In this document: positions 41,251 to 64,000 of the stretch, piece by piece
Position numbering within the stretch: position 1 is the stretch's first letter
How the letters are laid out: the number at the start of each line of letters is the position of its first letter
NCBI GenBank assembly: GCA_030248195.1
Contig: JASAND010018129.1
Span: forward strand, 62,001 to 126,000
Origin: Trissonchulus latispiculum
Taxonomy: Eukaryota > Nematoda > Enoplea > Enoplida > Ironidae
DNA: 64,000 bases
Direction of reading: 5' to 3'
The notes under the pieces: model-generated
What the model was told of the DNA's origin: nothing
What the model saw: only the letters and a program-made list of their open reading frames with translations
The model's database searches: none
Position numbers and translations under genes: made by a program

Positions 41251-41292
41251 TGAGTTCGGGGGCGGACTTTTGCTTTGACTTTAAGGCAAAGC

Positions 41293-41320
41293 TTCTAGAA
41301 GGTTCTAGAACTTTCTAGAA
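41293..41320. promoter_or_regulatory. Heat-shock element array, block A
   Basis: Three TTCTAGAA units spaced exactly 10 bp apart give six alternating GAA/TTC modules, each two bases apart. This is the consensus site for trimeric heat-shock factor (nTTCnnGAAnnTTC). The orientation is symmetric. About 105-135 bp away on the minus strand is the initiator-like TCAGTG at about 41187. Block B has the same array. Confidence 0.8.
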
Positions 41321-43387
41321 ACTTGCCACCTTTATCACTTGGGCCGCAGCGGCGGGCTGAGCCAGCTGGCCACTGAGGGTCAAAATTAAAGAGATTTTAA
41401 AATTATTGCCCTCCAACTGGCCCTTTTTTTATATATTTCGGGTCCTGAATTTTAGCAAAATTTTGCTAAACTTTCTTTAACACATAAACGCAACCAAAGG
41501 GACAATTTTATGAAATTTTAGAACTTTAACTAATTGTTGTGCAAATTACATAATTTTCAAGGAATTATAAATTACATAATTATATGATACCTACGTACGT
41601 ACACCCATCTACCTACTTTTTGTTGTGATTTTATTATTAATAAAGGGCAACGGCCCCCTTCTTGTCATGACTTGGGCTGAAACTACGTTAAATTTCATTT
41701 CCCTTCTTGTTGGCTTTGTCTTCGGCCAGAAGTTCAAGGGGAAGACAACTGTTGGACCCTAGAAGAAAGAGGCCCAACAGAATGGAGAGAAGAAAAGAGG
41801 AAAAAAGGTTTGACTTAAGTCTAACCAAAACAAAAACCTTTTTGGAACGCTCCTTTTGGAGTGTTAAGATTACGAAACGAAGACGTAATCTTGTTAAAAG
41901 ACATTTTTACTTATAACTTTCTTAATTTTGGGAGTTGAAAAGTCGGGTTTGGATTTTTGGAATCAGTATCAAATTCCCCTTTCATATGAGCCCAAGTCAT
42001 GTTTCGGACCAAAATTACGAAATTTCACTAAATATTAGTTAATTAACACTAATTATCACTAGTAAAGCCTATCTAATTACGTACTTAGCTATTTAATAGA
42101 TTTGAACCATCTTCCAATATTTGTTATCTTTGGTGCAATTCTGCGTTTTATGGGCAATTTTACGACTAATTTTCGACCTGCTAGATACATAAACTCCATA
42201 TTATTGGTTGATGTTTTTTCTGCTAATTCATGTTCAGTCAATAGTAAACGCATAAGGTGGTGAAAAGTTCATTCTTGATTCCGTTTATGAGTGACAACTC
42301 ATTGATATGCTGAAGATTGGTCAAAATGTCAATATTTCTCTTCGTGGGGAGTAACAACTCACTAATTTTCTTTAAGATTTATCAAGATACTACCGTTTAA
42401 GGTCGAGTGGAGTGACAACTTCGGTTATCAGGGGATTGGTGACCGAATTTACCCTTCTTACACTACTTCTAGAGTAATATTGTTAGTAGATTAAACATTA
42501 CTTAAATCGAATTACACTTAGAACCATAATTAAAACTAGGATTTCTGCCCTAATTGAGTGCAAACCTCGGACCCTATCTAAGATTTTCCCTTAATTTTGA
42601 GTACTAGACAACTCTGGCTTGGCAACACAGAACAATTTATACAATTAATGCTTGGACATCATTAAATAGCTATATTCCATGTTGATGACGGTTGATCTTC
42701 TTCACAAATTCATGGCATAAGAGTTCATCTTCGCTGATTTACTAATTTTAACCATTTTTCGACCATTTTAACAGATTTTAGCCTTAGGCTTTACTAATTC
42801 CATTACAACTTGTTTCTTTTAAGGTTGTGATTCCTTTTGGGCACATATTTTTGGTTGGCGGCGTAAATGAAGATGAAATTTGACGAAACTTTCCGAAATA
42901 AGTTCTTTTAGCGTTCTAACACCCTCTGCTCAATCCCGATTCAAAAATTCGAGATTTCCGGTTAGAGTGGTTTTTCCCAATTTCTGAACGTTTGGCAGCT
43001 GCTATACAGTTATGACTTCATTCGACAGAACTCAATGAGCTTCACATTTTTGCTTTTTAAAGCAAGTTTCTATCGTTTTCTCTAACGTGAGATATAGCCA
43101 ATTTTCTTGTTTTGGCGTAGAAAACTTGTCATTTTTGCAGAAATCAGATAATCCAACATTTCTTGAACTACGCAAGCCGTAAAATCAAACTAAGGGCGTC
43201 GATCCGAAGGTCTCACAGGGTCAAATTATCCGACGCATGATCGTCTTCCAACTGCTATCCTGTAGACTGCTATCATAAAAATGTAGTTTTTGCAAAAACA
43301 CGACCAATTTTTTCCAAAGATTGTGGAGCATTCACCATGCAAGCTGGAGGGCTGCTACTGAACACCTGTGTTCTGCACAAATATACC

Positions 43388-44075: not shown

Positions 44076-47000
44076 CTTATAGTGAGACCGAACTTAAAGA
44101 ACTAAGAAGCTATAGTCCGTATACCGCTCCTCGGTCTTGCTAGATTGTGAACGGGTTCCATTCTGACCCGTTTGCTTGGTTGACGTGCGTGCAGTGACTA
44201 GTGGAGCTATTAAATAAGCTCATTAGGTTAGGATAGGATAGGATTGATTGAGCGTGAGAACGGTTCAGATTTTCAGGGTTTAGCAGTGAACTACAACTGA
44301 TACTGAGCTGCGGGTGCAGTAAAACATATGAACTGTCCCCTTTCCCTTTCTGTTTCTATCTTTGGTCATGTCGGAGCTAGATACCTCTTGTCCTTAAATT
44401 ATGCTCCCGAGCGGGTGGACCCATTTTATTGCCCATTTTGGACTTCCCTTTGTGGTCCGCCTTGCTAAGACGTGTGCTGGACGAGGACGTGGACGCCGCT
44501 AACGACGACGACGAACTGTCCCCTAGATTACTGTTTTTGGGAAGCATTAGAGAACCAAACGCAGGCACCCTACGGCGGACCGTTAGGCTCGAGTTGACCA
44601 ACACCAGGCTAGCTTTATTTGGTTATGAGAATATCTTCATCATTTCGCGTCTACCACTGTGTAGCAAGAAAAGTTGCGCACTTTATATGCCAAAGTCTCA
44701 GTTATTTCGTTACTCTTATGACGAGGCTGGACGATAAACAGTTCTTCTGGCTCTGGGGAACTACCTGTGTCAAAATGTGTAATGAACTGAGTGAGATTAG
44801 AATGGAAAAACTTGACCAATTTAATTTGATTTCGAAAGTGGGGTCACTTAGGTTGAAAGTTCACTTACACGGAAGGTTAGCGCGTTTGCCTAAGGTAGAC
44901 AAACTTATGTACCAGATTCCCGAAAGGTGGTTTTCCAAAATCGGGGATCTCTACAGCTAACCTGTTAGGGGTACTATTGTGAGTTCGTTTAGTTCAGAGG
45001 GGTTCGGCACTATCCAATCGCACCAGGAGTATGGATAGGATCGCTTTGACGCAACAGGTTAAAACTAAGATCAGACAATTAGTCTTCGACTTGAGATAAA
45101 GATCCAACTTAATTGGATCTGAGCAAATTACCTTTATTATTATCCCTGGGAGATCTCACCTGGATCTCTTTTCAGCAGCTGAAATGTAGACTAACAATTG
45201 CACGCAACAAGGTTAATTTATTATCCAAGATTGAGATGATTACAATTAAAGGGACAGAATGGTTTCAAGACAATTATTAACAGCAAATAGAATTACAGTA
45301 TTCACAGGATTACGGGTTACTCAATTTACCAGAGTTGCCAGCCCTTGGTTGGGAAGGGTTATTTTTGGGGATGAGAGATTACCAAAATATAACTTAACCA
45401 GATTAAGGTCTGACCGGTCAATGACTAATTTAAGACTAATTATTAGTCCTCTTCTTCAGGTATTATGACTGGGCACGTTAGGTGTGTTGCGTGACGTGTT
45501 TAAACTCAAATATACTCTCTCTCTATTAGTCTTTTACAGAGAAACTACAACACAGGTTCAATGTAACAGATAATTAGCTAAAATTAACAGAGTGTCGGAT
45601 ATTACAATTCCGGTCTATGGAGTTGGGTGATCCCGTCAGGTTACACCTGCAACCTCACGAGTGGTTAGGGAAGTTTGGATAGTAAACAGTAAAAGGGGTC
45701 GGACCAGGCGGGGTGATACCGGGAGATGGCTTCAAGTATAGTTATAAGTTAAATTAAAAGGGCTTTAAATTAAGTTTCTTCACTAGATCCTCTTCCTTGG
45801 ATTTATTTCTATCCACTTATAGTGGTCTAAACCAGAGACAGGGCAGGAACACCGGTTCCTGAATAGGATAGGATAGAGGTGATCTTCTGACACATTTTTA
45901 GGCAAAGTTTAAAGATAAGTTTTAGGCTGACGTCGAAAGTAACTGATGTTTTAGGTTAGTAACTACAGATGAACAGTTCAGTTGATTTTGGCGGTTTTCC
46001 CAGTATAGATCAGGTTGTCGGATCAAGTGTCTCTGCCTCAGACTACTATCTTCAGAATTCCAATCTCAATGTACCTTCTAAAGTACTGAACTACGCCAAC
46101 GGAAATCAGGTCAAATCAATCAATCTATCAATCAATACTGGATCAGGCTACTAAATCACAGGCTCCGGTCAATCTCAATAGTGTTCCACTGGATCAGGCT
46201 CCACTGACAATGATCTGGCAGGACAGGATCACGGCGAACCTGAATCAAATGGGTTAAAACCCATTAGTTCAGAATACAAGTGCGGGAATCAAACCCAGCA
46301 ACTATTACTCACTTTTAAGGCTTTCAAAGACGAAAATTGAGGCTTTGGTTAATTCTGGTTAAGATTTTATTAAAAACTGGAATTAGTGTACTTTGACCAC
46401 TTTTGCAAGACAAAAAATGTGACTAATTATGCGCTGTTAGCTTAAAATAGATAGATTTCGCCGAATATGAGTTTTTGGGGCGATTTCCTGCATTGAGATG
46501 CCGGAAATCGCCGATTCAACATATATTCTTTGCAATCATATTCGGTCTGCGCATAATTAGATTTTAGGCGTAAGATTCGCGACAGGAAAGCACCTGTTTC
46601 CTGTATAACAAGTTTACAAAGGTAGAAACGTGTACTCGCAGGATTATTTCTTTTAAGCTTATTAGAAGATGGTTTCATTGTAATCTTTAATTCTTACGTA
46701 ATTACACAGTATTAATATCCTAACTAACTATTATTTATGTGATTTTAGGTTTATTTGATGCTTACGTAAAGATATTCACCATGTGTGCCATTAAATCCCA
46801 TAATTGCTTGCTTGCATTGATTAACGAGTATAATTTGATGCTTACAGTCAGATTTGGCTAGTATTTTCGATAGAAAACGTTTACTCTTTTGGAGTTACTT
46901 GTCTGAGCTGTAGAAACGATATACTTTGCAAAAATACAAACTACAGCCAGATTAGTTGTCCTGTTAATGAGAACAAGTGAGGGCAAGAATAATAACTTCA

Positions 47001-47401
47001 ACATAATTCTTGCAATTTGGTTAAAGCTGACTTTTGCCTTTTATGCTAAAGGCTAACAAAACGTATGAGTTATTTTGTGATGCACTGCGAGGATTACTAG
47101 CTCGAGATGGATCTACTGGCACAGATCTAGCTAATGAACACATATAATTAATACGAGACAATGGACAGACCTAACTAATTTATGTTACAGATTTTGGGAC
47201 AAAATTCGGCTCTAAACAGATAAAACAGACCAGCACGAAGTCCTTTATTTGCGATTCGTCCACTCCCTTCTTGCGGGTATACCTAGTACGTGGACGAATC
47301 GAGGACCACCTGGTAATACCAGCTTATCCTGGGGATCCCCGTGACCCTGGTCTAGATTAACTACCTAATTTGCATATTACCTCGATATCGAAATAGGTAC
47401 T

Positions 47402-47596
47402 CATTCACACTGTTTATCACACTCATATCCCTCAGATCCGCAAGCATTCACAACAAACACACATTTATACATATTCACAACCGAAAGGAAGATAAAGGGG
47501 GGGGGGGGGTTTGGGGGGCATTCACACTGTTTATCACACTCATATCCCTCAGATCCGCAAGCATTCACAACAAACACACATTTATACATATTCACA
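47402..47596. repeat. 78-bp direct duplication around a G12 tract
   Basis: 47402-47479 and 47519-47596 are identical copies starting CATTCACACTGTTTATCAC. They are separated by 39 bp that include a run of twelve G. It could be a slippage product or a tandem duplication cut short. Confidence 0.85.
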
Positions 47597-49058
47597 CCAA
47601 TTTCCTGCCTTTTTTTCCTGTACTGCCACACCCCGGTTGCTTTCGCGAGGAGGGGTAACGCCAAACCAAATTTGCTCAGGGTCCACGGTTTGGCGTTGAA
47701 TAATTGCATAAGCAATTACCCGAGGCGGCGGCAAAGCTACTGCCGGAGCAGAAGTAATCACAATACTTCGATCGCATCATGACCACCCGTCAGCTCCATT
47801 CAAGGGGTTTCCCCCCTGGACGGCCAACTCCTTGAAAAACTCGGATAACAACCATACAACTATTGGGGGGGGGAACTATTGGCACAGCCGTACCAAGCCT
47901 ATCATAGATGGTTGACTGTTATCAGCTGACAACAGATCCAGTTTGATTAAAGTTGTATACAGTTTCAAACAATTTTTAAAAGAATTTTCTTTTATCAGAC
48001 CCTTAGGATCCAAAGTTCCGTGATTGCGGCCGACATGAATGCAGAGGGTACATTCTCCCCTCTGGTCAGCCTGAGGTGCGAGTTTGCGTCATAAACTGAA
48101 TCCATTTAAGATTCAGGTTTAATTTCAAATTAAATAAAAAGACAAACTAAGTTATTATTACTTTGGTTTGATTCTTACCACTCGCCTGGTAACCCCTGGC
48201 GAGTAAGGGGGGATGAAATCCTAACTTGGAAAAAGCAGTATTTCCGTATCCCATTTCAGTCAGGATGTGTTGTCTTTGTTGTTCCTGTTTTGTTGTTCCT
48301 GCTTTTGTTGTTGTTGTTGTCGTTGATCTGAGTTTGTAGACAAGTGAGACCTCTAATCCAAAGGATTTGCTTAGATCGCTTCATGGTGGGATCATCCGCT
48401 CCCTCTCCGCTGATCGGGAAGCTCCATCTCCACTATTTCCCGACCTACAGCTGCCTTCTTGGGTAAGGCTTTGGAAGGTACAGTCGTTACCAGTTGTCCC
48501 CAAACTAAGATGAAGTGGGTTTGAAAGAAATTTAAAATTGTTCCATAAATTGATAAAAATTTCCAATTTCCTGCCTAATACAGGAATCCTAAGACAAACT
48601 TCACAAGGTTGGTCTCATGCACCTGATGAGGACCGGTGAGCTATCACATGTCAAGGTAATCCAGTGCAACTGACATTCCGAACTGTTTAGGATACTATCT
48701 TTAATTAGTATAAGATTTACCACACTTTACCGTTTGACAATTATTGGTAGAGCATACTACAACTTGTTGGGCCTTGGAATCCCTGGATTATCCCAATGTG
48801 CCTAGCTATATTTTTCAACAATCATTCATTCGACTAACATTCATACTGATTTGACAATTCTCACAACCCCTACCGTACAAGGGGAGTTTCCGTGAGTTGC
48901 CACCACAATTATACGAAAACATTCATTCCGCATACATGCAATTCAGAACATTCTACAGCCATTCAACCAGACATCCTTGAAACTTGGTTAATTTCGGAAC
49001 CTCACGCTCCATGAGGAGTTTACCCGAATAACCACCTTAGGTACTTTTTGGGGACACA

Positions 49059-49210
49059 TTCACACATTAATTTTGCAACACATTCACGCTTCAATTGTAC
49101 TAAACATTCACACTTCAGGCTTACAAAACATTCACACCTCAGACTTACAAAGCATTCACACTTTGGACTCACAAAACATTCACACTCCAATTGTACAGAA
49201 CATTCATACT
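49059..49210. repeat. Minisatellite, about 24-bp unit
   Basis: Six or seven imperfect copies of the type ACATTCACACTTCAGGCTTACAAA occur in tandem. The same ACATTCACA core appears near 47.4 kb. Confidence 0.75.
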
Positions 49211-50405
49211 AATAACTATCTAGCTACTTAGACTAACTAATGAATTAAACTTAGGCTCATTTGTGTAAGAACTTTGTAAACTTTGGACTTTGTTGTGCGC
49301 GACTTTTACAGCTTTGCAATTCCTCAGAATTGCCTATAAAAGAAATTTTATGGGAAAAAGTTTAAATTTTACAAGTTTGGAAAAAGGTTTGACTTGAACT
49401 TTGATGAAAGCCAGTGAGTAATAATTGCTAAGCAATTATTACTAACAACAAAGAACAGTTAAGTAAACTAAATACACAATTAATTAAAACTACGGAAAGT
49501 GAGGAATCCGGCCATTCCTCTTGAAAGACTGCTTGATAATTAATTAAATTAAACATAAAACAACTCAAGTTTTAGGAATTAGCTTTTAAAACATCCTATA
49601 CTTTTTTAATACCTAGCGATTTAATGCCGACCTAACGCTAAAAATAAAACATAATACTGACAGTATAATTTTTTTGTGCAATATGGCGTTTTTGAGAACA
49701 TGGCCGGCAACTCCTAGTTGCCGGCTGTAGGGAGTTACTTTTTCTTAACTAGCTTAGTAATTTTAGAGCCGTAATTAAGGGGCTCTCGAACTAAGAATTA
49801 GGGGTTTGGGGTCCCACTCATAATCCCATGAAAACTACGAAAAATAACCCCAAAAGTGACAAATAAAGAGAATAGTTTGACCATAAAGGCCTACTAATTT
49901 TTAGGCCAAAAGGCCGTGGCTTGGTAAATGAAAAAGGGATTAAAACGAGAAAGTAAAAGAAGAGAAAAGTGGGCATGCTTCAAGACCTCCATCGCACAGG
50001 AGGGGTTTACATGAGCTGCCCCTTGATTTTTGGAATAACTTAAATAATAAAATAAAAGGTAAAATAAACCTGGCCCGGAGGCCCAACATGCTATGGAAAT
50101 AAAGAATGGCCTTGGGCCCAAAAAATGGCTATAAAATCGGGGCTCGCTGGCCCAAAAACTTCATAAAAACTGGCCATGAAGGCCCAAAAATACCATAAAA
50201 AATAAGGCCTAAAGGCCGAAAAATACAATATGAAAAATTGGCCAAAGGCCACTATAAAAATTCCTAATTATTTTTATCCTAGGCAGAAATTATGAGCCGG
50301 GCATAAGAAACCCATAGGCTCCTCAAGTTGGAGTGTTCGTGCTTTGTCTCAACCCTTTTCTGGCCAGTGTGGGCCAGAAAAGTCCTAGGTGCATCCTATG
50401 GGGAA

Positions 50406-50459
50406 GTGTGTGTTACTATATTCCCGTACCACACCAGTGGTCCGAGAAGTAACACACAC
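50406..50459. promoter_or_regulatory. Long hairpin in block B, shape-conserved with A
   Basis: GTGTGTGTTACT pairs perfectly with AGTAACACACAC, with an inner ACCAC/GTGGT stem. At the same position block A (41089-41136) has AGTGCG/CGCACT outside and TGCAAT/ATTGCA inside. The sequence is not conserved, but the two-stem shape is. Confidence 0.6.
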
Positions 50460-50618
50460 GGGGATGGGGGACTAAAATTCAGGCCGCTCTCGGCCACTGC
50501 TAAACGAACACTGACTAACTTAAAATTTTGGGGACCGAGCTGACAGTTTTGCTGACAGCTCGGTGACAGGTCATTAGCGAACTGGGGGCGGAATTTCTCT
50601 TTTATTTTAGCCTAAAGC

Positions 50619-50646
50619 TTCTAGAAAGTTCTAGAACTTTCTAGAA
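50619..50646. promoter_or_regulatory. Heat-shock element array, block B
   Basis: TTCTAGAA occurs at 50619, 50629 and 50639, again giving six alternating modules with perfect 10-bp phasing. Only the two-base spacers differ from block A (AG/CT here, GG/CT there). Confidence 0.8.
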
Positions 50647-52554
50647 GCTTGCTATCTTTTGCACAGGGCCAGCAGCGGCTGGTTGAGCCAGCTGGGCCAT
50701 TAAGAGCTGAAATTAATGAGATTTGCGAATTATTGCCCCCCAACTGACCCTTTTTTGATGGATTTTCGATGCTGAAATTCTGCAAAACTTTGCAAAATTT
50801 TGGTTAACATGTAAACGTAACCAAAGGGGAAATAACATGAATTTTGGCATTTGTTTCTAACTTTTACGCAATCTACGTAAGTGCTAAAGACTTAAAGCGA
50901 AAACCTTGATTTTCTACAAGTTTAGCTAGCCATAACCGACTAATTTTCATAATAATTTTAATTGTGGGGAATTAATTAAGCCCCCTCTGAAGTTTACCTA
51001 TGTGTTAAATTTGTGTCCTCTTTTCTTTTCTTGAGGCGAACTTTTGTTGTCCTCCTCTTGTTGGACTAGGCCCAACAAAAGTTCACCTGAGGACAGCCTA
51101 GCGTACGTAGGAAGAGATGAAAGAAAGAGGGAACAGCAGCGCACCTGGCTGCCTTGTAGTCTGGGAGGTAGACAACCTCCCAGACAAAGAAAGGAGAAAG
51201 GAAAGGAGGAAAGAAAGTTAGTATAAAGGTTTTTTAGAAGTCCCCTTTTTGGACTTTCCTTTTAAGCAAAGTAAGATTAGGAAATAAAGGCTAATCTTGC
51301 TAAAACATTTTTGCTTATAACTCACTCAATTTTGGGAGTTAAAACGTGGGGATTGCATTTTTGGAAAGGGGAGAAATTTCTCTGTCATATGAGCCTAAGT
51401 TGTATCACAGACCAAAAATACATTTCTTACGTAATATTTAGCTAATTAACATAAATTAAACCTAATTAACACTAGTTAACATGATTAATAACAATTTAAA
51501 ATCCTAAAACATTGTAAAACACGAATTATTGCAAATTAACGCACTGAGGTACTTATTACTTCTAGTTTCTTACGTATAACCTAATTATGTGATTATTTGG
51601 TCAAACCATCTTCCAATATATGTTATCAGACACTAAAAAGGCTTTTAAAACACTGCTGACAAAGATTAGTGTATTCTTTTCGGCTAGAAATGTTGAGTTC
51701 CTTATCATGGTAATTATAAATTTCGCTTTCACGCCAACACTAGGATTTCTAGAGTTTTACGATTCTTCCGTTCTTATTAACCTCTAGCAATGGAAGGGTA
51801 AAGTGACCGCACCCGGGCCACTGAGGGAAAGGACACCTGTCCTTTCAGAAAGGGGAATTGTGGAATTGACCTTATTGTTATGATTTTTATCACTCCACGT
51901 GTAATAGTTCATTATTTGGACTGATTGATCCTAACTAAGCTTGTAAGTGCCCTTCTCTTGTGTTAATGCTGGAGTAACGTTAGGCCTTTCTTCTAGTATT
52001 AGTGAAAAAATGCTTATTTGGGACTGGCAACTCTGATTTCAACAGTTATACAACGACAATTAATTATGGCTTGGACACAATAACAAACTAAAGCTTAACA
52101 TCGATAAGATCTGTTAGATTTCGTTTCCTGTAGAAACCTCTTTTGGGATGGTGACCAATTAGAAACTAACTTTTTAACCACTTTTGAGCACAAGATCTAA
52201 GTCATTCCATTACAACCTCCACAAGAAAAATGGGTGGGATTTCTGCTAGGGGGAATAAACCAAAATGTTAACCCATTTCTTTCCAAAATGTTATCAATTA
52301 CACATCATAACAATTATCTATCACTTCTAATCAATGACTACTAACAATAGCTCTATATAACAGTTCTTCTAATAATCAAGATTAAGACCAATAAAGAGTA
52401 TTTTACATGTGCTGTGTTTCGTGCTTGACATATATCCCAGTTCATATCATTATTCCTTTTGTAGTACACTAGCCTCCTAGGGCTTACCAGTCACAGTTCG
52501 TTATATTATCTGCTCTACATATTAAATTCTAACTTCTACTTCTTCTCTTTCTTG

Positions 52555-53995: not shown

Positions 53996-55288
53996 CTAAC
54001 TGCTCCAGCGAGGGGGAGTGTAATCTTCCTCCTCATAGTAGAAGGGCTCAGGGGACTCTGTGAGCCAACGCAAATAGTCTTCCATTTGTTCCTCCAAGGT
54101 GGGAGGATCGCATTCTGCGCAAGCGCAAGGGAGGGTATCTGGTGGGACGTTGGTCGGTTCTGGCTCCCTTTCAGGTTCGTTGGCTCTGCAAAGGAGCCGC
54201 AATTCTTCGAGCTGACGCCAGTACTCTCTGGCTGGAATGATTTCGGCCTCCAGACAGCTGCGTAGAGCTTGAATCTCCCTAATGATGTAGTTGGGGATGT
54301 CATGGCGCCAATCATCAGGAACCAGAGGAGGTGCCATTCCAGGTGGGGGTAGTGGATCCAGACTGTCTACCACGGATTCCGGGAGGGACTCAGATTCAGG
54401 GAGGGATTCGGTTTCGGATGCAGGTGTGATTTCTTCAACATCTTGCTCTTCTTCTTCCCAATCCTCCTCGACAGAAAAGTCCTGGTTTGGGAACTTGGGG
54501 GGTGAAATGGGAGGATAGGGGCGGGTCTCATTCAGCATCGTAGGGTAGTTGGGCTCCGGCCCAAAGGGCGGTGGAGGGTAATAGGGTTGTGGGTTTGGAA
54601 TATCCGGGTTGTTGACTATCTGCAGAATTTCCTTTCGCAGATTCTCCAAAGAGACAGCGTAGAGGGCTCTATCACCCGGAGTATCATCTACCTTATAAGT
54701 GTTGAGTGAGAAAATGCGGAAGGCGGCTTGAATATGATCCTGAACGGTCGTGTCAGGATGGATACTGACAGCGTTGTCTGTATCAATCTGAGCCTTTCTG
54801 AGCCGCAAGCCAGTATCGCCGAATTTGGTCTTGTATCCCGGGTATTGTGTGGCAACGGGATATTTATCTTCTTTGGGGAACATTTCCAGGAGACGTTCTG
54901 CTCTATATGTCTTCGGTTCATGATGAGGGTGGTCGTTTAGGCTCTTCAGGACAGTGTAGGAACCCAGCCAATGAGGCACTTTTACTGGACAACGGGTCGC
55001 GGCCTGCTTCTGGCCTGGTTTTGCGAATGGAACTCCGCATTGAGGACAGATTGCCTGGCCATCTGATGAGGGTGTACAGGTTGTGGGCCTGTAACCAAGA
55101 TACGGTTGGGCAATTGGGGGATTTGGCATCGCAGAGGGAACTGGAGCTCTGTGTCGGATGGCTGGTGAAGGATCCGTTGAGATAGAATATATGCCCCATT
55201 CCATCAGGGCTTCTCTGACACGGTTCCGTTGGGGCGGTTCTGTGGGGTCATAGGTATTGGCATATGGGGTTGTTTTCTTTATTTTCCA
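53996..55288 (-). CDS. Pro/Glu-rich protein with a Cys pair, unknown
   Basis: A long open frame of about 430 residues ends at 53996. A strong 3' splice-site-like TTTTCTACTTTCAG precedes 55288 in transcription order, and no good ATG starts the frame. It is therefore probably a downstream exon, with a fallback start at the Met in ALMEWGIYS. The visible parts are a zinc-ribbon-like CPQCGVPF followed by a C about 20 residues later, a middle segment with SLENLRKEILQIVNN, then a Pro-rich and strongly acidic region (EEDWEEEEQDVEE, repeated ESESLPES), a helical stretch and a final Cys cluster (LPCACAECDPP). I do not recognise the family. Low sequence complexity and acidity suggest a structural or regulatory rather than enzymatic role. 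Confidence 0.65.
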   Translation of the reverse strand, partial: WKIKKTTPYANTYDPTEPPQRNRVREALMEWGIYSISTDPSPAIRHRAPVPSAMPNPPIAQPYLGYRPTTCTPSSDGQAICPQCGVPFAKPGQKQAATRCPVKVPHWLGSYTVLKSLNDHPHHEPKTYRAERLLEMFPKEDKYPVATQYPGYKTKFGDTGLRLRKAQIDTDNAVSIHPDTTVQDHIQAAFRIFSLNTYKVDDTPGDRALYAVSLENLRKEILQIVNNPDIPNPQPYYPPPPFGPEPNYPTMLNETRPYPPISPPKFPNQDFSVEEDWEEEEQDVEEITPASETESLPESESLPESVVDSLDPLPPPGMAPPLVPDDWRHDIPNYIIREIQALRSCLEAEIIPAREYWRQLEELRLLCRANEPEREPEPTNVPPDTLPCACAECDPPTLEEQMEDYLRWLTESPEPFYYEEEDYTPPRWSS

Positions 55289-55594
55289 TCTGAAAGTAGA
55301 AAACACTAATGCCACAGATTAATGAATTCTAGCATGGAATTTGTGTATGTTATGCAGTCTAGCCTGACGTACCCAGTCGAGGTCTATTAGACGCATGATT
55401 TTTGCGAGTGGGAAATAGGAGCAGTTAGAGAATTGAACTCCTCAAAAATGTATCATTTTCAAAATTAACTAGAAGAAATAGTTATTAGATACATGTCCCA
55501 TATACAATATACAAACAGGCAAGACAAATATCTGTACACAACAATTTCAACTATAACAAAAAGAATAATATATATCACAGCCTTAGACAACAGT
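55289..55594 (-). other. Gap between the two 3' genes, possible intron
   Basis: About 300 bp separate the NADAR stop codon from the acceptor-like site at 55289. It is AT-rich with no open frame. It could be an intron that joins an upstream exon to the 53996-55288 frame. Confidence 0.4.
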
Positions 55595-57055
55595 TCAACG
55601 GCGTCTGGGCCTCTTCGAGGGCGGTCCATGGAATCGGGGGCGATCATGCAGGGATAGGGGCATTAGAGATGGGACAGAGGGTGACCGCTTCTTCGGAGAG
55701 GAGTGAGGTTCCTTCCTCTTTGGGGGATCAGGGACCTTTCTCTGGGACTCCTTGGGCTTTGAAGAGCCATAGGGTTTGGTATCTGGATGGCGGGGCCGGT
55801 AGATGGGGGAATCCTTGTGAGGCCGTTTACTGAGGTAAACGGACAAGGGGACTCGCTTCAGGGAGGTGGCCGTCCAAGACTGAAGAAGCCTCTGGTTAAA
55901 ACAGAGGGGAAGGGCATAAGTGTGCCCGGTAGGGATGGCCACGGGATCCTGGGGCCGGAAGTGGGTGCCGTCATCACGGAATGTGTAGCATCCCCACACC
56001 AATCCGGCCCAGGCAGGATCTTTCTTCATGGTCTTCACCGGGTCGACTGAATCCGGAACATACACCAATGTTGGCAAGGCCCGGATCATGGGCACCGACT
56101 CCATATAGGGTGGAATATCCTTGAACTCCTGGTGGAGTCGCATGGCCTCGTCCCTGTAGAGGTCGTTGGGACATTTGTGGATGGTAGTGTCGATTTCTGG
56201 TACCACCACAATTCTGGTAAGCAGGGGGGAACGGATGGCCAGAGCCACCCGCAGACAGCGGACAGGGGTGGCCTTCGTGATAGGGAACGTCAGCGGTTCT
56301 GACGTTCCGGCAATTTCTCTGAGAAGGGCCAGGACCTGGGGATTTTGGAGGGCGCATCCTCCAATCACGGCCACACGAGGGCGCACGGTATAGATACCTT
56401 CAGCGTCCTTCAAATAGACCCTGAAGAATTCCAACAACTGGCTAAGCATATTGGCGGCCTGATGGGAGGCACAGTGATCAGAAGCCTCCTGATCGAGGGT
56501 CTTCTTAGACACCTCCAATTCTCTGAGGCGAAGGTCTAGGAGTTCCTGGTGGATACCCCAGAAGCGATTTCTGGTGGCCTCCATGAGGCGACTGTCTCTG
56601 GTCGCCAACAGTTCTTCCTTGAATTGGGGGAGGGAAAACTTGGCAAAGAGGACTGCACCCATAACGAGGGTTTTGAATGGGTAGTGGTAATTTGGATTCA
56701 TGAGGAGGCGGCTGAGCTGCACATCCGCATTGGCCATCTGTTTGGCCTCCAGGGGTTCACGGATCTTAAGGATCTTGTAGGCGGTGGAGAATGATCCTGT
56801 AAGGAAGGCAAGAATCGCCTGATATAGGTTTTCCGCCGTGAAGGCGGCCTTGTTCCAATGACGGATCATAATGGGGTCGCCCTTGGCATCGCGACCTTCA
56901 ACTCTGGCGAAGTTGGACAACTTCTGGTATTCAGTGGCATTACTCCTAAAGTAGATGTAATGCCCAGGGCTATCAGGATGGTATGGGAGTTGGAATAGGG
57001 ACAACCTTCTCAATTGTTCAAGGGAATTCTGGTGAATCACGTTGATGTTGTTCAT
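55595..57055 (-). CDS. NADAR-domain protein (YbiA-like)
   Basis: This is a 486-residue open frame. The ATG follows a splice-acceptor-like TTCTTTTGCATTCTAG with no base between, so the mRNA is probably cis- or trans-spliced right at the start codon. Residues of about 33-168 match the NADAR fold: IYFRSN..., LSNFA, TAENLYQA (Glu75 in the usual catalytic position), PLEAKQMA, LVMGAVLFAKF and LLATRDSRLMEATRNRFWGI. Known NADAR proteins hydrolyse ADP-ribose links, including ADP-ribosyl-guanine in nucleic acid. Residues of about 225-330 (VAVIGGCALQNPQ...VVVPEID) form a separate, unrecognised alpha/beta-like region. The C-terminal 80 residues are basic and Pro-rich (SKRPRRR) and may act in the nucleus or bind RNA. 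A role in reversing host ADP-ribosylation is inference. Confidence 0.75.
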   Translation of the reverse strand: MNNINVIHQNSLEQLRRLSLFQLPYHPDSPGHYIYFRSNATEYQKLSNFARVEGRDAKGDPIMIRHWNKAAFTAENLYQAILAFLTGSFSTAYKILKIREPLEAKQMANADVQLSRLLMNPNYHYPFKTLVMGAVLFAKFSLPQFKEELLATRDSRLMEATRNRFWGIHQELLDLRLRELEVSKKTLDQEASDHCASHQAANMLSQLLEFFRVYLKDAEGIYTVRPRVAVIGGCALQNPQVLALLREIAGTSEPLTFPITKATPVRCLRVALAIRSPLLTRIVVVPEIDTTIHKCPNDLYRDEAMRLHQEFKDIPPYMESVPMIRALPTLVYVPDSVDPVKTMKKDPAWAGLVWGCYTFRDDGTHFRPQDPVAIPTGHTYALPLCFNQRLLQSWTATSLKRVPLSVYLSKRPHKDSPIYRPRHPDTKPYGSSKPKESQRKVPDPPKRKEPHSSPKKRSPSVPSLMPLSLHDRPRFHGPPSKRPRRR

Positions 57056-57904: not shown

Positions 57905-60900
57905 CTAGTATTCTGGGGAAGCAGGTTCTTCTGGCTCCAGCGACCAAGGGGCTCCGGACCTATTACGAATTCGCTCTCGAACTTGTGGGGCTGATTGTGG
58001 GTCGGCTGTTCGTCCCTCTAAATAATGTTGTGTTGTTGATGAGTCCCTGGAGGAATATCTAGAACCTTCACGTGGGATTGAGTAATCCAGGGGCATATGA
58101 GCATCTTCCTCATTAAAGTATCCTCCTCCAAATCCGGGAGGTACATTTATTCCACATTCAGTAGCTCGACGCCTGTGACTTCTTTGTTCTGTAGTAGGGG
58201 TTGTTTGCGGGACTCGGGGTTGATCAGCCGTGGATTGTGCAGCATAGTTAGGGAGTGGTGCTTGTTGTTTCTCTCTTGGTAAATACCGTTCTCCTATCAA
58301 TGCAGATTGGTACAGATCATACAAACTCTTGGCCTTATCTGGATACATTTCTGTTCGATCACGCACTTCATGTCTTAACCCGGCAATAAAAAGCAAACTG
58401 AGGTAGGTGTCGACAGATTTTGCAGTCATTCGTTCGGGATACACTTGCCCGGCATAAGCAAGCAACCGTTCGTAGAAACTATCCACTGATTCGTTTTCCC
58501 TTTGTGCAATTGTACTCAGCAATTCTCTCCAAGCACGAAAATCTGCGGGAGATTGAGTCGTCCTGTCGGCCAGTTTCGGTGTTACTGTTCTGGCAGGAGT
58601 TGTCTGAACCTCTGACGCGGAAGCTCTCATCCGGGTTGAAGGGCCTGGTTTATCTTTATAGAGATCCTCTTCAACTGAGAGAGCCAATAGATACAATTCA
58701 TCTAGTCGACCAGTAGAAATAGGCATTTGAAGGCGTATATCCCTTTGTAGTCCAATGATGAAGATTCTTCCTAGGCTGATCATGATTGATTCTGAATTAA
58801 TGTAATCACCATAGACACTATCCGCATAGTCACGAACTCTATGGTAATACTGCTTTATGGTTTCTGATTCACCCTGCTTAACCGGGGGTGAGGAAGTCGT
58901 TGATGGATGCGCTTTAGAAGGCCGCGGGGAGCGTGCTCTCGCTCCTTGGGAAGCTTCTGTCTTGACATCCGGCATATGACGTGATTGGGTAGTTGGAGCC
59001 ATAATTTTTCTTCTAAGATCCCTTGAGATCATTTCAGATACTCGATGTGTTGTTGTTAAGGGGATGGAGTATGCTGCGGGTGGAGGGGTAAGGTGTATCT
59101 TCAACTGTTTTGTAGAAAGGCAAAGTTCAAAGGAACCACTGAACTTAGCCAGAACATCAATTCCCAATAGCATCGCCTGAGGTAGGTGAGGGCTAACTAA
59201 AATAGCATGAGGGATCGGTGGGTGGTTGGGACACCCTGGGAAGGAGATAGCTGTTTCGAGTTTCTTTGTAATATTCAATTGATGTCCGGTGGCTGAGGAG
59301 CTCTGTCGTGGACGTTCTAGATTCGTCAGGGGAAAATTGTGCCTCTGAGCTATTTCTTCGGACATCACGGTAATACTGGCTCCTGTATCAAGAACAGCTT
59401 CAATTGTAATTCCTTGAATAGATATGTCGATACAGGGTATGGGAAGGATTGTGGGTGTACCTCTAGGTGTATAGTCGACTTCATCCATCAGGCACCAGAT
59501 CCTGTCTCTCCTGCCGGTGGATGAATCTCTGGATCGATTACCTTGATACGGCGGGGGAGTAACGGCTCGAGCTCCAGCTCTTCCAATATCTGGACTTGCA
59601 GCGCGCAATGGCGGACTTTCTCGTTCATATGAGCTTGCTCTATATTGGTGTAGCTGGTGAAATGGTTCATTTCTTAGTTGTTCTTCTTCTGGTGCAGACA
59701 ATAATGGTCTTCTAGGTCTGATAGGGTTAGGGTATCCAGATTCTGGGGAGTAGGGTGGATAGGGTGGTAGTGGTTCCAGAGGAATGTCTTCGAATCTTAG
59801 CTGTCCTCTTCCAGGAGGATGAGCATAGGATCGAGGCCTAGCTCCTTTGGCCCTGCCTTCTGTGACAGCGTGTATTGGATGTAATGGTCCTCCAAGCAGA
59901 GGTGACCGGCTACGCAATTCGGATGGGCTTGAGCTGTCAGGAGGTGACGTTGGAGGTGAGGTTGGAGTTCTTTGAGTTCCTGTTCCCAATCTACTCAGTC
60001 TTTGTCCTAATCCGAAACATGATCCACGTATCCGTTGGAGAAGATTTTCCCTGAATTCACTCATACACGGGGAAAACCAAATGGTAACAATCACTCCCAC
60101 CACAATCAGGATAAGAATGATTATGAAACCAGTCCAAAAGTTCATGTTGAGAGGGTGGATGACGAGCGGTGCAGTGCGGTGATGTTTTTCCAGCAATTTC
60201 TTCACGGCTTTGTTTTCATATTCTGCTCGTTCTAGATCAGTGAATTGGATAGGCACTATGCCCAAATCGGGGGATTCGAAGGGGACTTTATAGGTAATGA
60301 GGGGCGCTGAGTATTGTACCACCTCTATTGCGCTGGTTAGGACCAGATCACCAACTATAATATGATTGTAGGATCCATGCTCTATCCATATTACACCATT
60401 ACTGGGTACTGCGATTGTTTCCCCACGTGATACATGTTGTAATTGTGGAGTTTGAGTCAGCATGATTTCGGAATGACTGGTTCTGATTAATACACCAGCT
60501 GGTGTGGAGGCAAAATCTGTATCGGGAGTTAGAACTTTCACCATCATCTGTTGCCTACAGTTTGCGGAATCAATAGGAGTGGCTGAAACGATAGCTTTGA
60601 GGCAAGCTGATTGGGGTGTTGAAATCAACGATTCCGGTCCACAAACCCATAGTCCCGGTGATGATCGGCACTCTTCAAGCTTAATTTCAGAGAATTCGGA
60701 ATTACGATGATTAACCTCGTGTCTGACGAAGCGCGGAACTGGGGCCTTCATCTGAGCATGATTTGAGGGATCATTATATCCAACATTGCTGACCTCGTAA
60801 ATGGGTGCCACATCCTCTCGTGTGGGAGTGGGTATTTCCATAATAAATCCGAAAAGTAGTTTTCTGATATCCATTCGTACAGGATAGATCTTCCCAAATC

Positions 60901-61430
60901 TATAAATCAAGCTAGGTTCGTCCCTCAAGATTGTTTGGTTAAGTTGAGCGTGTCCATTCACTATGTCACGGATGATTTTGTAGTTGATAAGACTAGGAGA
61001 AATCCGTCCGTCCAATCCAGCGGTCATGACGCTATCAATACTGTGCTTAAGGGAATGCTCGAAGTTGGACACAATTAATGAATACTGCACCTGAGTACTC
61101 ATGGTCAAGGCTTCACATCGTGCAGAATTGATCAACCCAACTAATTCTTGTACGGAGTAATGCATGAAAGAGTAAATTTGTTCATTCGCCTCAACTAACT
61201 TCTCCAAGGCTTCGTTATGAGCGATTACCTGTTCATCCAGTTTTTGGGTGGCTTCAATGACAGCATTGACCTTATCTTTTACGGATCCCAAATTAACAGT
61301 ATTGGATATGGCCATACCAAGTCCAACTATACCAATAATGGAACCGACGGCTCGCCTATTTCTCTGAAGAGGGAGTTTGGATTGGACATGTTGGAATCCA
61401 GTATCTGCGTAAAGCGTTGTATTCTTGATA
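57905..61430 (-). CDS. Env-like fusion subunit fused to retropepsin and capsid-like domains
   Basis: An unusually long single frame, open from at least 61430 to the stop at 57905; the first Met at 61315 is not a likely start. In order: a basic furin-like site and glycine-rich hydrophobic segment; a heptad-rich helix (residues about 10-60 from Met61315); a Cys-containing ectodomain (to about 390); a transmembrane helix (about 393-414); a Pro-rich tail; an aspartic protease with VLDTGASITVM (about 641-651) and LLGIDVLAKF (about 716-725); then two capsid C-domain-like repeats, about 815-887 (ESETIKQYYHRV..FIIGLQRDIR) and 920-1012 (ENESVDSFYERL..FIAGLRHEVR). Layout up to the membrane helix matches class I fusion glycoproteins. 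Protease and capsid downstream of Env is the reverse of retroviral order. No reverse transcriptase is in this frame. Confidence 0.75.
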
Positions 61431-64000
61431 TTTAGGTTGCGAGGTGTTACACAGGATAGGACTTTTGTCGCAGATTATCTTCATTATGGACGAGTAGTAT
61501 CTAGTGTTGAGTATTCCACCATACATCTCATGATATTCTTCTGTTACGTTCCTAATCAGTCCAGTTAGATGTGGTTCATGAGGGCAGTCAGCAAGTAGTT
61601 CGTTCGCTCGATTCCGAGGGGTGTCGCATTTCTCACACTGATCCCGAAGGCTTTCTGGAACTGAAGAGGGCTCTCCTCCACAGAGGGAGCAGAAAAATAC
61701 CCAAGCTTGCATCTTCTTAAGTTGTGGAGGTTTGGGCACCTTCATGTGAATCAGGATTGGAACATATTCTGTTTTAGTGTAGGTTGCCATTAATCCTTTA
61801 GGAGATAGGGCTAATCCCCATTTGGTGGATACCATGGTGTTCATCGCTTTAGCCTTTTGAGTGAGGTAGTCTTCATTTTCCTGTGCTTGGATACAGGGAA
61901 CCAACATGGCTATCATCAGGCCAAAGGCAATCCACATTACTAGGATGCGAAAAGGTAGTGAAGTTGAACCCTTCACTTTATTAGGTGGCTTAGACATTGG
62001 GGATTCGTTATGTTCATTCTCGGGGGGAGATAGATCCATCTTTTCCCTTTTGGATAGTCGTACGGTCGTGGGGACAGAACTTGACCTAGGATTATTCTTG
62101 CGGGTCGGTGTAGGAGTTCTTCTTTTGGGCACTATCGGGGGATCGGTTGTTTTCCTGACGGGATGAAGGGCTTCCATTCGGGCTCGAGCGAGCAAGAATT
62201 GCTGGTATGATTCCCAACATCGTTCCCTTTCTCTCTTCATCTGCCGTATACGACGTTCTTCTTTTTGGGCGCGCTTTCTCTCTTTACTTCGAACATCTTT
62301 CAAGAGTCTACGGAGAAACTTGATATCTTGGGGGCAGAGGTCAGATTCAGGAATATGAATTTCTCCAATCGCTTTCTTTATTTTCTTGATAACCTTCTTC
62401 CTTTTCTTCTTACTCTTCCTATTCTTTCTAGTCTTTATGACAGTAGGCTCGACAGCATTTAAGTTCACTCGGACTTCTCGAGTTCGGAGCTTCTTTGTAG
62501 CATTATCCAATTCCTCATCTGTATCTTCTGACATTTCTGAGCTGGATGTATCTGTTGGGCTATCCATGAGATCATTCTGGATCAGTTTTCCTTGGAATAG
62601 GCCAAAGGTCTTATTTTGGAGAGAGGGATCAATGTTTTCTTTGTTATCGTCCGTTAGGCCCAACGTCAAGGGAATAGGGGGATTTAATAAGTTTTCGACC
62701 CATAGATCGAGTCTTCCGGCATGGGGAGATTCTTCAGGGGCTTCCAATATGTCACTGTCAAGGCAGCAGTAGAATTCCTCATCAGAAACTGATCTTTCCA
62801 ATCTCTTCAATATCCGTCTGCTGACTTCATAGATGGCATCCTGATCAATAGGCTTAAACTTACTTTTCCCTGGGTATTTGATGAGATCGGTGATTTGATA
62901 TTCCAACTGAGGAGGAGATGAGGCTCCGCCCTGGACCATGAAGATACTAGGGTCTAGGACTCGCAGGAGCTCTTCTTCGGTGAGCATTTCTCCAAATCTG
63001 TCCAGAACTCTTCGAGCAAATTTCACAACTGGGCCCATCTCGACAGGGGTAGGTTCCGGCTGATGTTCTTGTTTTGATTGAGGGATGTCAGAGTTCTGAA
63101 TCCGTGATATCCGGTCTTGTTCCATCTGACTCCGGTCATCTTGCTTCTTTTGTTCCATCAATTCCTTTTCAGAAACCAAGGGAGCATGTAACAAATCCAT
63201 TGCCATACTACCATGCGCAAGTACCTTCCGTGCACTTTGCATCACTGTAGGCATATCAATGTCAGAATTTGGCTTAGGACCAATAGGTGCTGGGTTAGGA
63301 TAAAGAGAGATGATTCCATTCTCCTGATGACTGAGAATAGGCCCAACCTGAGGAGTGGGGGACAGCCCAAGTTGTATTCTGAATTCTCGTACTGCTTCTC
63401 CCAAACCAATGGCCAAAACATCTGAGGGAGGAACTGACTGAAACCTGGGGGCAGGATAGGTTTGAGCAAAATCATGACATCGAGGACTTCTTCGCAATCC
63501 TCGTCCACGTCCTAATGACCGTCCTCGTGCTTGGTTCCTTGACCGTTCCACATCATAAGGTCCAGGGAACCTTCTAGTTGGAAGCTGAGTCACTTGGATT
63601 GGCTCATTGATTGATTGCTCCGGAGAATTTTCCTTTTCCGTGTTTCCCTCAGTGGGGGAGGAGGTGGAGGATGAATCCTGTGAAAGCCTCTGTTTCACAT
63701 GGGAAGGATAGCCATACTCTATGGTCTGAGGTTCTTCCAATCGGTGAGTGCGAGGATAGGTGACAGACATTGGCTTCTGATACATAGGCAGGGAGTAAAG
63801 TTCACGATCCAGTTTTTCAGTCTCAGGATCCACTGATTCCTTCTCCGCATTCAAAGTATAGGTGGATTTCTCCTTTGGTTGTTCAATCTTCACATAAGGA
63901 GGGATAGAGAAATATTGTCCTCCCAAATCCTTGATTTCTTGTTCCAGTTGTAGAATCTGGGTGGGAAAACTAGAACTCTCAGGCGGAAAATAGGCAGTTT
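61356..64000 (-). CDS. Unknown basic/coiled-coil region leading into Env-like surface subunit (5' partial)
   Basis: The frame is open to the window edge, so the true start lies beyond 64000; the codon at 63926 is TTG. From there: a low-complexity N part, an RG-rich stretch (ARGRSLGRGRGLRR, about 133-147), three related helical repeats (QSARKVLAHG at 231, KFARRVLDRFG at 302, EVSRRILKRLE at 367), a strongly basic segment (KSKKKRKKVIKKIKKA) and a charged coiled coil. A hydrophobic signal-like helix follows (about 658-681), then a Cys-rich secreted domain with two N-glycosylation sequons (NVT, NTS). It ends at TAG 61356 overlapping the next frame by at least 75 bp; the subunit on the other side of the cleavage site is read in that other frame. 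The two are therefore linked by frameshifting, splicing, or a mutation. Confidence 0.65.
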   Translation of the reverse strand, partial: TAYFPPESSSFPTQILQLEQEIKDLGGQYFSIPPYVKIEQPKEKSTYTLNAEKESVDPETEKLDRELYSLPMYQKPMSVTYPRTHRLEEPQTIEYGYPSHVKQRLSQDSSSTSSPTEGNTEKENSPEQSINEPIQVTQLPTRRFPGPYDVERSRNQARGRSLGRGRGLRRSPRCHDFAQTYPAPRFQSVPPSDVLAIGLGEAVREFRIQLGLSPTPQVGPILSHQENGIISLYPNPAPIGPKPNSDIDMPTVMQSARKVLAHGSMAMDLLHAPLVSEKELMEQKKQDDRSQMEQDRISRIQNSDIPQSKQEHQPEPTPVEMGPVVKFARRVLDRFGEMLTEEELLRVLDPSIFMVQGGASSPPQLEYQITDLIKYPGKSKFKPIDQDAIYEVSRRILKRLERSVSDEEFYCCLDSDILEAPEESPHAGRLDLWVENLLNPPIPLTLGLTDDNKENIDPSLQNKTFGLFQGKLIQNDLMDSPTDTSSSEMSEDTDEELDNATKKLRTREVRVNLNAVEPTVIKTRKNRKSKKKRKKVIKKIKKAIGEIHIPESDLCPQDIKFLRRLLKDVRSKERKRAQKEERRIRQMKRERERCWESYQQFLLARARMEALHPVRKTTDPPIVPKRRTPTPTRKNNPRSSSVPTTVRLSKREKMDLSPPENEHNESPMSKPPNKVKGSTSLPFRILVMWIAFGLMIAMLVPCIQAQENEDYLTQKAKAMNTMVSTKWGLALSPKGLMATYTKTEYVPILIHMKVPKPPQLKKMQAWVFFCSLCGGEPSSVPESLRDQCEKCDTPRNRANELLADCPHEPHLTGLIRNVTEEYHEMYGGILNTRYYSSIMKIICDKSPILCNTSQPKYQEYNALRRYWIPTCPIQTPSSEK

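What the first reader, a model, noticed from the sequence alone, without database searches (positions are those of the whole stretch)
57905..61430. One reading frame in the order Env, protease, capsid
The sequence shows a fusion-type transmembrane subunit, then a DTGAS retropepsin with its LLGxDxL partner motif, then two capsid C-domain-like repeats, with no stop between them. Retroviruses and LTR retroelements place Gag and protease before the polymerase and Env last. A continuous frame of more than 1100 codons implies the arrangement has been maintained. It could be a circularly permuted element, a virus-like lineage that moved Gag behind Env, or an extra Gag-protease module added to a giant retroelement.
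Basis: partly seen in the sequence, partly recalled or inferred. Interest (0 to 1): 0.88.

Follow-up and report, generated by a model that had tools for sequence, protein, structure and literature searches.

The report
Giant retroelement with capsid-for-polymerase swap
A giant virus-like parasite in this genome exists in two matched forms, one carrying its copying enzymes and one carrying two extra capsid pieces in the same place, which suggests that the two forms travel and work together.

Summary
Window 57905-61474 (-) is one open frame: a paramyxovirus-F-like fusion subunit, a DTGAS/LLGxDxL retropepsin, and two capsid C-terminal-domain (CA-CTD) repeats.

It is not a permuted genome. It lies inside one giant LTR element (LTRs 5.1 and 7.4 kb, 4-bp duplication CATT, 1.3% substitutions between LTRs). 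The ordinary Gag sits upstream and runs in frame towards Env. Env between Gag and protease is the published Burro-type order. New is that RT, RNase H and integrase are absent and a PR-CA-CA cassette stands in their place.

It is a family: 29 other loci carry nearly the whole frame at 65-93% identity, and 21 have 2490-2573-codon frames (Gag checked in 6 of 6 sampled). Both repeats are under purifying selection. The same backbones occur with polymerase: C6651 is 86-91% identical in the long DNA matches on both sides and differs from PR to the stop codon. A second pair (C18944/C6111) breaks at the corresponding place before PR. PR trees sort by form; NADAR trees pair the twins.

Best reading: a pol-less form mobilised by its pol-bearing twin. 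The extra capsid domains, closest to another element's Gag, probably act in particle assembly; that role is inferred.

The parts
44778..52214 (-). 3' LTR of the element (TGTAATGG...TTCATTACA), with two long stretches absent from the 5' LTR (about 45157-46804 and 47480-48562); followed by the 3' copy of the 4-bp target duplication CATT. The 5' LTR lies right of the window at L009 6626-1523.
   Evidence: blastn of L009 against the window; LTR ends and CATT read; 59 substitutions in 4517 aligned bases
53996..55318 (-). ORF-D, 440 codons stop to stop, no known domain; shared with the pol-bearing twin and partly with other pol-less copies
   Evidence: 91% aa to the C6651 twin; partial matches in 3 of 3 other pol-less copies examined
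55595..57055 (-). ORF-C, 486 aa, NADAR domain; accessory gene found in both forms
   Evidence: Pfam NADAR E 1e-8 over cut-off; 95% aa to the C6651 twin; 49-63% in 3 of 3 other pol-less copies examined
57905..59507 (-). The PR-CA-CA cassette: from just before the protease to the stop codon; the part not shared with the pol-bearing twin C6651, which has PR-RT-RNase H-integrase here
   Evidence: blastn junctions: 90.5% identity up to 59507, resuming at 57868, 36 nt past the stop, at 86.4% over 4980 columns
58274..58552 (-). R2, second CA C-terminal-domain repeat
58655..58888 (-). R1, first CA C-terminal-domain repeat
59051..59431 (-). Retropepsin (DTGAS, LLGIDVL) of the cassette's own protease group
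   Evidence: Pfam; PR tree; motifs
59495..60064 (-). Pro-rich cytoplasmic tail / linker between the membrane anchor and the protease
   Evidence: 94% aa to the C6651 twin
60065..61354 (-). Class I fusion (F-like) transmembrane subunit: fusion-peptide-like stretch after RNRR, heptad-like region, ectodomain, membrane anchor (the anchor, heptads and cleavage site read by eye)
   Evidence: PDB sequence match to F proteins; 98 F-like candidates scored in the genome
61359..63998 (-). ORF-A: in-frame continuation of Gag (Gag proper is at L009 1516-2; boundary codon is sense), then a long low-complexity region, then a signal-peptide-like stretch and Cys-bearing surface region (about 61359-61928, named from its place; no family match). 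In this copy it is in another frame than the F subunit; in other copies one frame runs through.
   Evidence: open frames in other copies

Best explanation
The frame is the 3' part of a Gag-Env-PR-CA-CA polyprotein of a pol-less form ('CA2 form') of a giant, Burro-organised gypsy-like LTR element. Backbones of this family also exist in a pol-bearing form in which the stretch from protease to stop codon is PR-RT-RNase H-integrase. Shown: anatomy, LTRs with target duplication, family, purifying selection, cassette exchange, and for the closest twin a shared PBS-like site, leader, LTR end, Gag start, Env, NADAR and ORF-D. Inferred, very likely: the pol-less RNA is packaged, reverse transcribed and integrated by enzymes of the pol-bearing twin, and co-packaging with template switching exchanges cassettes between backbones. 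Inferred, moderately likely: the pol-less form supplies Gag, Env and protease without Pol, and after processing its tandem CA C-terminal domains bind a capsid lattice and tune particle assembly.
For: One LTR pair with TG...CA ends and CATT duplication encloses everything; the LTRs differ by 1.3% substitutions, so the element moved although no RT was found in it. 29 other near-full-length copies of the frame at 65-93% identity, 0 of 29 with a stop inside; 73 of 150 scored rows, window included, carry the double repeat nearly complete. In 6 of 6 CA2 copies sampled, Gag lies upstream in the frame of F, 86-98% identical. dN/dS: R1 0.10, R2 0.06, linkers 0.34 and 0.58; PR 0.07, F end 0.03. Window/C6651: LTR end and leader 87.7% DNA, Gag N-part 97% aa, PR 51% aa, F 97% aa, NADAR 95% aa. 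Synonymous divergence is 0.43 in the F end but 2.25 in PR, so the contrast is not selection on F. Second pair C18944/C6111: 95-96% DNA before the break, PR 65.6%, 96.6% from NADAR on. Trees: PR splits by form, 100/100; NADAR pairs CA2 with pol twins, 100/100 twice. A PBS-like motif is shared with five pol-bearing elements and with C6651 and C17124.
Against: No expression, particle or mobilisation data. One genome only, so the pairing is not tested across species. RT was sequence-checked in 3 of the 9 long-frame F relatives. The 3' junction was seen in one pair only; in the second pair the fetched piece of C6111 begins inside NADAR. R1 and R2 have no significant PDB match and none over a Pfam cut-off (R2 alone), and the structure model failed. 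The F-end tree is only partly mixed: 4 changes against a shuffled mean of 5.9, 40 of 500 shuffles as low, and its twin forks (91/89, 88/93) stay below the tool's star. The window copy itself is frame-broken between the surface and F regions. R1 and R2 are nearer to a foreign Gag than to the own one, so binding to the own lattice is not assured.
Confidence: 0.72

Rival explanations
1. The CA-CA module is a trans-dominant inhibitor, like the Ty1 p22/p18 fragment: free CA C-terminal domains block particle assembly of the own family or of a rival element. The pol-less form would then be an interfering parasite or a superinfection brake, not a structural helper.
For: Only the C-terminal domain was kept, twice, without the N-terminal domain; both copies are under strong selection. 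Both repeats score better against the Gag of a different element (R1 42%) than against the own Gag (R1 22.5%). Ty1 p18m, a Gag fragment, dimerises and is suggested to block assembly (PMC8458377 abstract).
Against: The module is fused in frame to Gag, Env and a protease; PR and the F end of CA2 forms are also under strong selection, which a pure inhibitor would not need.
Confidence: 0.3
2. Plain deletion derivatives: Pol was lost, copies spread passively with helper enzymes, and the CA-like stretch is an incidental filler.
For: Pol-less LTR derivatives are known; for instance the EAV-HP insertion in blue-egg chickens lacks pol and parts of gag and env (PMC3554524, passage).
Against: R1 and R2 dN/dS 0.06-0.10 against 0.34-0.58 in the linkers beside them; the cassette's own protease group at 100/100; 21 open frames of 2490-2573 codons.
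Confidence: 0.05
3. The first reader's circular permutation, or Gag relocated behind Env.
For: The order Env-PR-CA inside the window.
Against: A Gag with zinc knuckle lies upstream next to the PBS-like site; the trailing repeats lack the CA N-terminal domain and knuckle; three pol-bearing relatives have Pol at this place.
Confidence: 0.01
4. Chance fusion of two different elements, or an assembly artefact, at this locus.
For: Genome in 21732 contigs, rich in retroelements.
Against: Same frame in 29 other loci. Of six further CA2 loci sampled, 6 have PR before CA2, 5 have the tail before PR, and 4 have F before the tail, one of them in short pieces; the other two stretches end before F.
Confidence: 0.01

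Closest known systems
Burro giant gypsy-like LTR elements of planarians (PMC6431247; passages and section 7 read)
   Same: Giant LTR element, Gag with zinc knuckle first, F-like Env in frame before PR, then RT-RNase H-integrase in the pol-bearing form
   Different: The window form has no RT, RNase H or integrase but PR-CA-CA; NADAR ORF; no BIR, BCL2, MATH or dUTPase match in the pieces scanned. No Burro sequence was available to compare.
Ty1 p22/p18 restriction factor (PMC8458377, abstract and section list; PMC4599808, search listing)
   Same: A capsid C-terminal fragment encoded by the element itself
   Different: Ty1 makes it from a sub-genomic transcript started inside its own GAG; here it is a separate, tandem, divergent copy fused behind the protease in place of Pol
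Pol-less non-autonomous LTR elements: EAV-HP insertion (PMC3554524, passage); TR-GAG (search listing only); BARE-2, LARD (recalled)
   Same: LTRs and structural genes without Pol, presumably mobilised in trans
   Different: As far as I saw or recall, none has an added, selected capsid cassette exactly where Pol stands in a matched twin
NADAR-bearing retroelements: Ectocarpus Gypsy lineage and oyster Tx1 LINEs (PMC12477816, passages)
   Same: A NADAR domain carried by a retroelement
   Different: [quoted passage not shown] here it is a separate ORF downstream of the polyprotein
Paramyxovirus-type F proteins, and by recalled knowledge baculovirus F and errantivirus Env
   Same: Class I fusion subunit with cleavage-like site and fusion-peptide-like stretch; sequence match E 9.1e-4
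   Different: Part of a Gag-Env-PR polyprotein

Membership tests
LTR retroelement | Paired LTRs with target-site duplication | tested here: met
LTR retroelement | Primer-binding site after the 5' LTR | tested here: met
   PBS-like TGGAGCCCCC(A/G)GTGAGGA(T/C) in the window element and seven pol-bearing loci; the matching tRNA gene was not sought
Autonomous gypsy-like element | RT, RNase H and integrase | tested here: not met
   Pfam scan of the four long window ORFs and the Gag piece; tblastn of the window, L009 and L010 with L017 Pol pieces finds only a fragment at 33321-33812 outside the element
Burro-type element | Gag, Env and PR in that order in one frame | tested here: met
   21 other copies have 2490-2573-codon frames with F and CA2; Gag found in the same frame in 6 of 6 of these sampled. 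The window copy's frame is broken between the surface and F regions
Burro-type element | Pol (RT-RNase H-integrase) after PR | tested here: not met
   Not in the window form. Met in pol-bearing relatives: RT-RNase H piece and start of integrase in L043, L045, L046 by tblastn, Pfam RT, RNase H and integrase in L017
Burro-type element | dUTPase, BIR, BCL2 or MATH domains | tested here: not met
   No such Pfam match in the pieces scanned
Burro-type element | Sequence kinship with planarian Burro Pol | not testable with these tools
   No Burro sequence in the collections at hand
Retroviral-type CA C-terminal domain (R1, R2) | Homology to Gag CA C-terminal part, including the major-homology-region pattern | tested here: met
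   name of the motif recalled
Retroviral-type CA C-terminal domain (R1, R2) | Fold | tested here: inconclusive
   Single-sequence model pLDDT 39, nine helices, no strand
Ty1 p22-like inhibitor | Lowers particle assembly in trans | not testable with these tools
   Bench assay needed

The most novel reading that the evidence does not exclude
A two-genome retroelement: a polymerase segment (Gag-Env-PR-Pol) and a structural segment (Gag-Env-PR-CA-CA) that share termini, leader, Gag, Env and accessory genes, are co-packaged, recombine, and have both been kept by selection. The structural segment solves the Gag:Pol stoichiometry problem of an element whose Gag, Env and Pol are one frame, and the tandem capsid domains, taken from another element's Gag, are a dedicated assembly factor.
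Probability: 0.3. Interest if true: 0.93.

Novelty: new variant of a known kind. Interest (0 to 1): 0.78.

Why it matters
LTR elements without Pol are usually read as decaying parasites. Here the pol-less form has its own protease group and a selected capsid module, and it sits opposite a matched pol-bearing form in two backbones examined. That makes directly testable whether a retroelement can divide its genome between two co-packaged forms, how a single-frame Gag-Env-Pol element keeps Gag in excess over Pol, and whether captured capsid domains act as assembly factors or as weapons against rival elements.

Tried and rejected
Circular permutation and Gag-behind-Env: rejected, since Gag is upstream. 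Chance fusion: rejected by other copies. Duplication of the own Gag as the source of the repeats: less likely, since other elements' Gags score higher for both (R1 151 and 125 against 65; R2 101 and 88 against 59). RNA-level explanations of the frame change between ORF-A and ORF-B: not pursued, because other copies are open through it.

Led nowhere: protein searches of ORF-B and of the NADAR ORF, no hit; PDB searches of the C-terminal piece and of the NADAR ORF, none; PDB profiles of R1 (one chance-level row) and R2 (none); the Gag profile reached PNMA2 capsid only at E 0.035; single-sequence structure model; scan of viral contigs with the R2 alignment, 49 pattern matches, 0 confirmed. A paper search for pol-less gag-env LTR elements gave one fungal transposon survey, not read. 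The listing for Burro with nematode (43 papers, 10 listed) showed no title on such elements; why those papers hold the word was not checked. That the CA-for-Pol cassette is unreported rests in an open-access library only. Host: the neighbouring SLC6 gene has its best full-coverage match in the nematode Plectus sambesii (55%); the species was not identified.

Limits on counts: genome searches score only part of their candidates (150 of 12472, 39 of 2067, 150 of 455, 98 of 935), so copy numbers are lower bounds. dN/dS means leave out pairs with saturated synonymous sites: of 36 pairs, R1 kept 21, R2 15, PR-R1 linker 34, R1-R2 linker 35, C-end 33, PR of CA2 forms 21, F end of CA2 forms 15; against the window the pairs lost for R1 and R2 are the four divergent copies. 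Of eight RT-bearing contigs fetched, five match Gag and F; the other three (C18640, C19071, C632) do not and were left out of the trees. The trees hold 17 elements chosen by me (9 CA2, 8 pol); NADAR 11 of these.
Full report
What is in the sequence. Read by eye, its N-terminal 470 residues carry an RNRR cleavage-like site, a fusion-peptide-like stretch, a heptad-like region, a long ectodomain and a membrane anchor. By sequence they match viral fusion glycoproteins F in the PDB: 12 of 16 rows listed at E up to 10, the best (8fmy) at 9.1e-4 and the only one under 0.001. A Pro-rich tail follows, then a retropepsin (gag-asp_proteas E 1.2e-9, RVP 1.1e-4), then two repeats, R1 (58655-58888) and R2 (58274-58552).

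Are the repeats capsid-like? Pfam alone does not say so (Retrotrans_gag E 0.27 and 0.019, below the cut-off). The Gag of the same element lies just outside the window (L009 1516-2, Retrotrans_gag 2.1e-8, zinc knuckle 1.4e-4). R1-R2, R1-Gag and R2-Gag local alignment scores of 91, 65 and 59 exceeded all of 2000 shuffles each. Profiles of nine R1s, nine R2s and six Gags match with E 1.7e-10 (R1-R2), 1.6e-8 (R1-Gag) and 5.1e-7 (R2-Gag). All three alignments hold an invariant Q-x3-E-x7-R, the major homology region as I recall it. The repeats cover the C-terminal part of capsid only. The nearest relative found outside the family is the Gag of another element of this genome, C13017: R1 42% identity, E 3e-17, with a CCHC knuckle visible in the translation. 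R1 is 22.5% identical to its own Gag over 71 columns, and both repeats score higher with C13017 and C11812 than with the own Gag or the four other giant-type Gags compared. A structure model without an alignment was useless (pLDDT 39).

One element, not two. L009 6626-1523 (right of the window) and window 52214-44778 are the two LTRs. They begin TGTAATGG, end TTCATTACA, are flanked by CATT, and differ by 59 substitutions in 4517 aligned bases, unevenly spread, besides long indels. After the 5' LTR come a PBS-like motif and Gag, which runs on in frame (boundary codon AAA) into ORF-A (61359-63998), whose end is a signal-peptide-like stretch and a Cys-bearing surface region. In this copy the surface region and the F subunit are in different frames, so the copy is broken there; other copies are open through it. 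After ORF-B come a NADAR ORF (55595-57055) and ORF-D (53996-55318). No RT, RNase H or integrase was found in the element: tblastn with Pol pieces of a relative found only an integrase-like fragment at 33321-33812, outside it.

A family. Searching the 734-Mb genome with ORF-B gave 42 rows, 39 of 2067 candidates being scored. By my count 29 loci besides the window carry it nearly whole (query start at or before 23, end at or after 1133) at 65-93% identity, none with a stop inside. 20 of these, and one more locus seen (C5733), lie in frames of 2490-2573 codons. In 6 of 6 of the 21 sampled, Gag (86-98% identical over 200 residues) lies 3.8-3.9 kb upstream in the frame of F. With the double repeat, 73 of 150 scored rows, window included, span it nearly whole; two of the 73 hold stops. 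No frame in that list exceeds 2573 codons, whereas RT-bearing frames run to 3708 and F-bearing frames to 3841. In 3 of 3 other copies examined downstream, a NADAR ORF and at least part of ORF-D follow, and the Pol pieces find nothing. In six further loci sampled, 6 have PR before CA2, 5 the tail before PR, 4 F before the tail (one in short pieces; the other two stretches end before F); some are frame-broken.

Selection. Over nine copies (36 pairs, saturated pairs left out), dN/dS is 0.10 in R1, 0.06 in R2, 0.34 in the PR-R1 linker, 0.58 in the R1-R2 linker and 0.23 in the C-terminal end. It is 0.07 in PR and 0.03 in the F end of CA2 forms. The repeats have therefore been kept for a function.

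The twin. Of eight RT-bearing contigs fetched, five carry Gag, surface region, F and PR like the window's, in that order ahead of RT, with a NADAR ORF behind; the other three do not match Gag or F. In L017 Pfam shows RT, RNase H, integrase and an OTU domain. Among F relatives, nine loci with 3787-3841-codon frames have F 86-97% identical to the window's; none of the nine is in the CA2 list. I checked three by sequence: all have the RT-RNase H piece and the start of integrase after PR, and no CA2 match. C6651 is the closest: LTR end plus leader 87.7% DNA, Gag N-terminal 145 residues 97%, tail 94%, NADAR 95%, ORF-D 91%, and 4980 alignment columns behind the frame at 86.4%. Only the last kilobase or so of its LTR was compared. 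Identity of 90.5% stops at window 59507, just before PR, and resumes at 57868, 36 nt after the stop. In between the window has PR-CA-CA and C6651 has PR-Pol; the two PRs are 51% identical. A second pair, C18944 (CA2) and C6111 (pol), has 95-96% DNA identity up to the corresponding place, 65.6% in part of PR, and 96.6% over 3471 columns from inside NADAR onward; its 3' junction was not fetched.

Trees. With nine CA2 and eight pol elements, PR splits by form along one branch (100/100; 0 of 500 shuffles as clean), with DTGAS or DTGAT in CA2 forms and DTGAN in pol forms. The F-end tree mixes forms (window with C6651 91/89, C18944 with C6111 88/93, neither starred), though not wholly at random (40 of 500 shuffles as low). 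NADAR (11 elements) pairs window with C6651 and C18944 with C6111 at 100/100 each. Synonymous divergence between window and C6651 is 0.43 in the F end and 2.25 in PR, so the contrast reflects history, not constraint. This fits one origin of the PR-CA-CA cassette among the sampled elements, now in different backbones, two of which are also known with Pol.

How it most likely works. The window copy was inserted with a target duplication although no Pol was found in it, so RT and integrase came from elsewhere; the twin, with the same leader, PBS-like site and LTR end, is the obvious source. Co-packaging of the two RNAs and template switching would explain the shuffled cassettes. That is inference, but a strong one. 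What CA2 does is less certain: it may add to or tune the capsid of mixed particles, or block assembly as is suggested for the Ty1 fragment p18m (PMC8458377, abstract). Its closeness to a foreign Gag leaves open that the target is a rival element.

Known and new. Env in frame between Gag and Pol was described for planarian Burro elements as a first case (PMC6431247, section 7). NADAR in retroelements is known from Ectocarpus and oyster (PMC12477816, passages). Pol-less LTR elements are known. I found no report of a selected capsid cassette that stands in for Pol in matched twins (searches; open-access library only).

Noticed in passing
window 33276-33956 (+): Integrase-like fragment of another retroelement (tblastn 25% to an L017 integrase piece, E 2.9e-10).
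   Followed up: no
window 39825-42055: A diverged LTR-like copy (68-76% identity in pieces) beside the 3' LTR of the element.
   Followed up: no
L009 6084-6595; window 45157-46804 and 47480-48562: A hairpin-bearing stretch of about 512 bp in the 5' LTR and two long stretches in the 3' LTR that the other LTR lacks. The C6651 LTR (L044) matches the window 3' LTR across part of the first of these, so that one may be partly a loss from the 5' LTR.
   Followed up: partly
L009 7299-10000 (+): SLC6 glycine-transporter-like gene starting under 1 kb from the 5' LTR; best full-coverage match in the nematode Plectus sambesii (55%).
   Followed up: partly
L017:3117-5198 (-): OTU-like cysteine protease domain behind integrase at the end of a pol-bearing frame (E 1.1e-6); whether the closest twins have it was not checked.
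   Followed up: no
G000:C4648 22187-24253 and 39356-41421: Eight CA2 matches in two opposed blocks on one contig, possibly an array of capsid repeats.
   Followed up: no
window 22693-23689: 147-bp tandem array, 6.8 copies, 96% matches.
   Followed up: no
L058 and L059: Gags of other elements (open frames of 614 and 745 codons) score higher with R1 and R2 than the element's own Gag does.
   Followed up: partly
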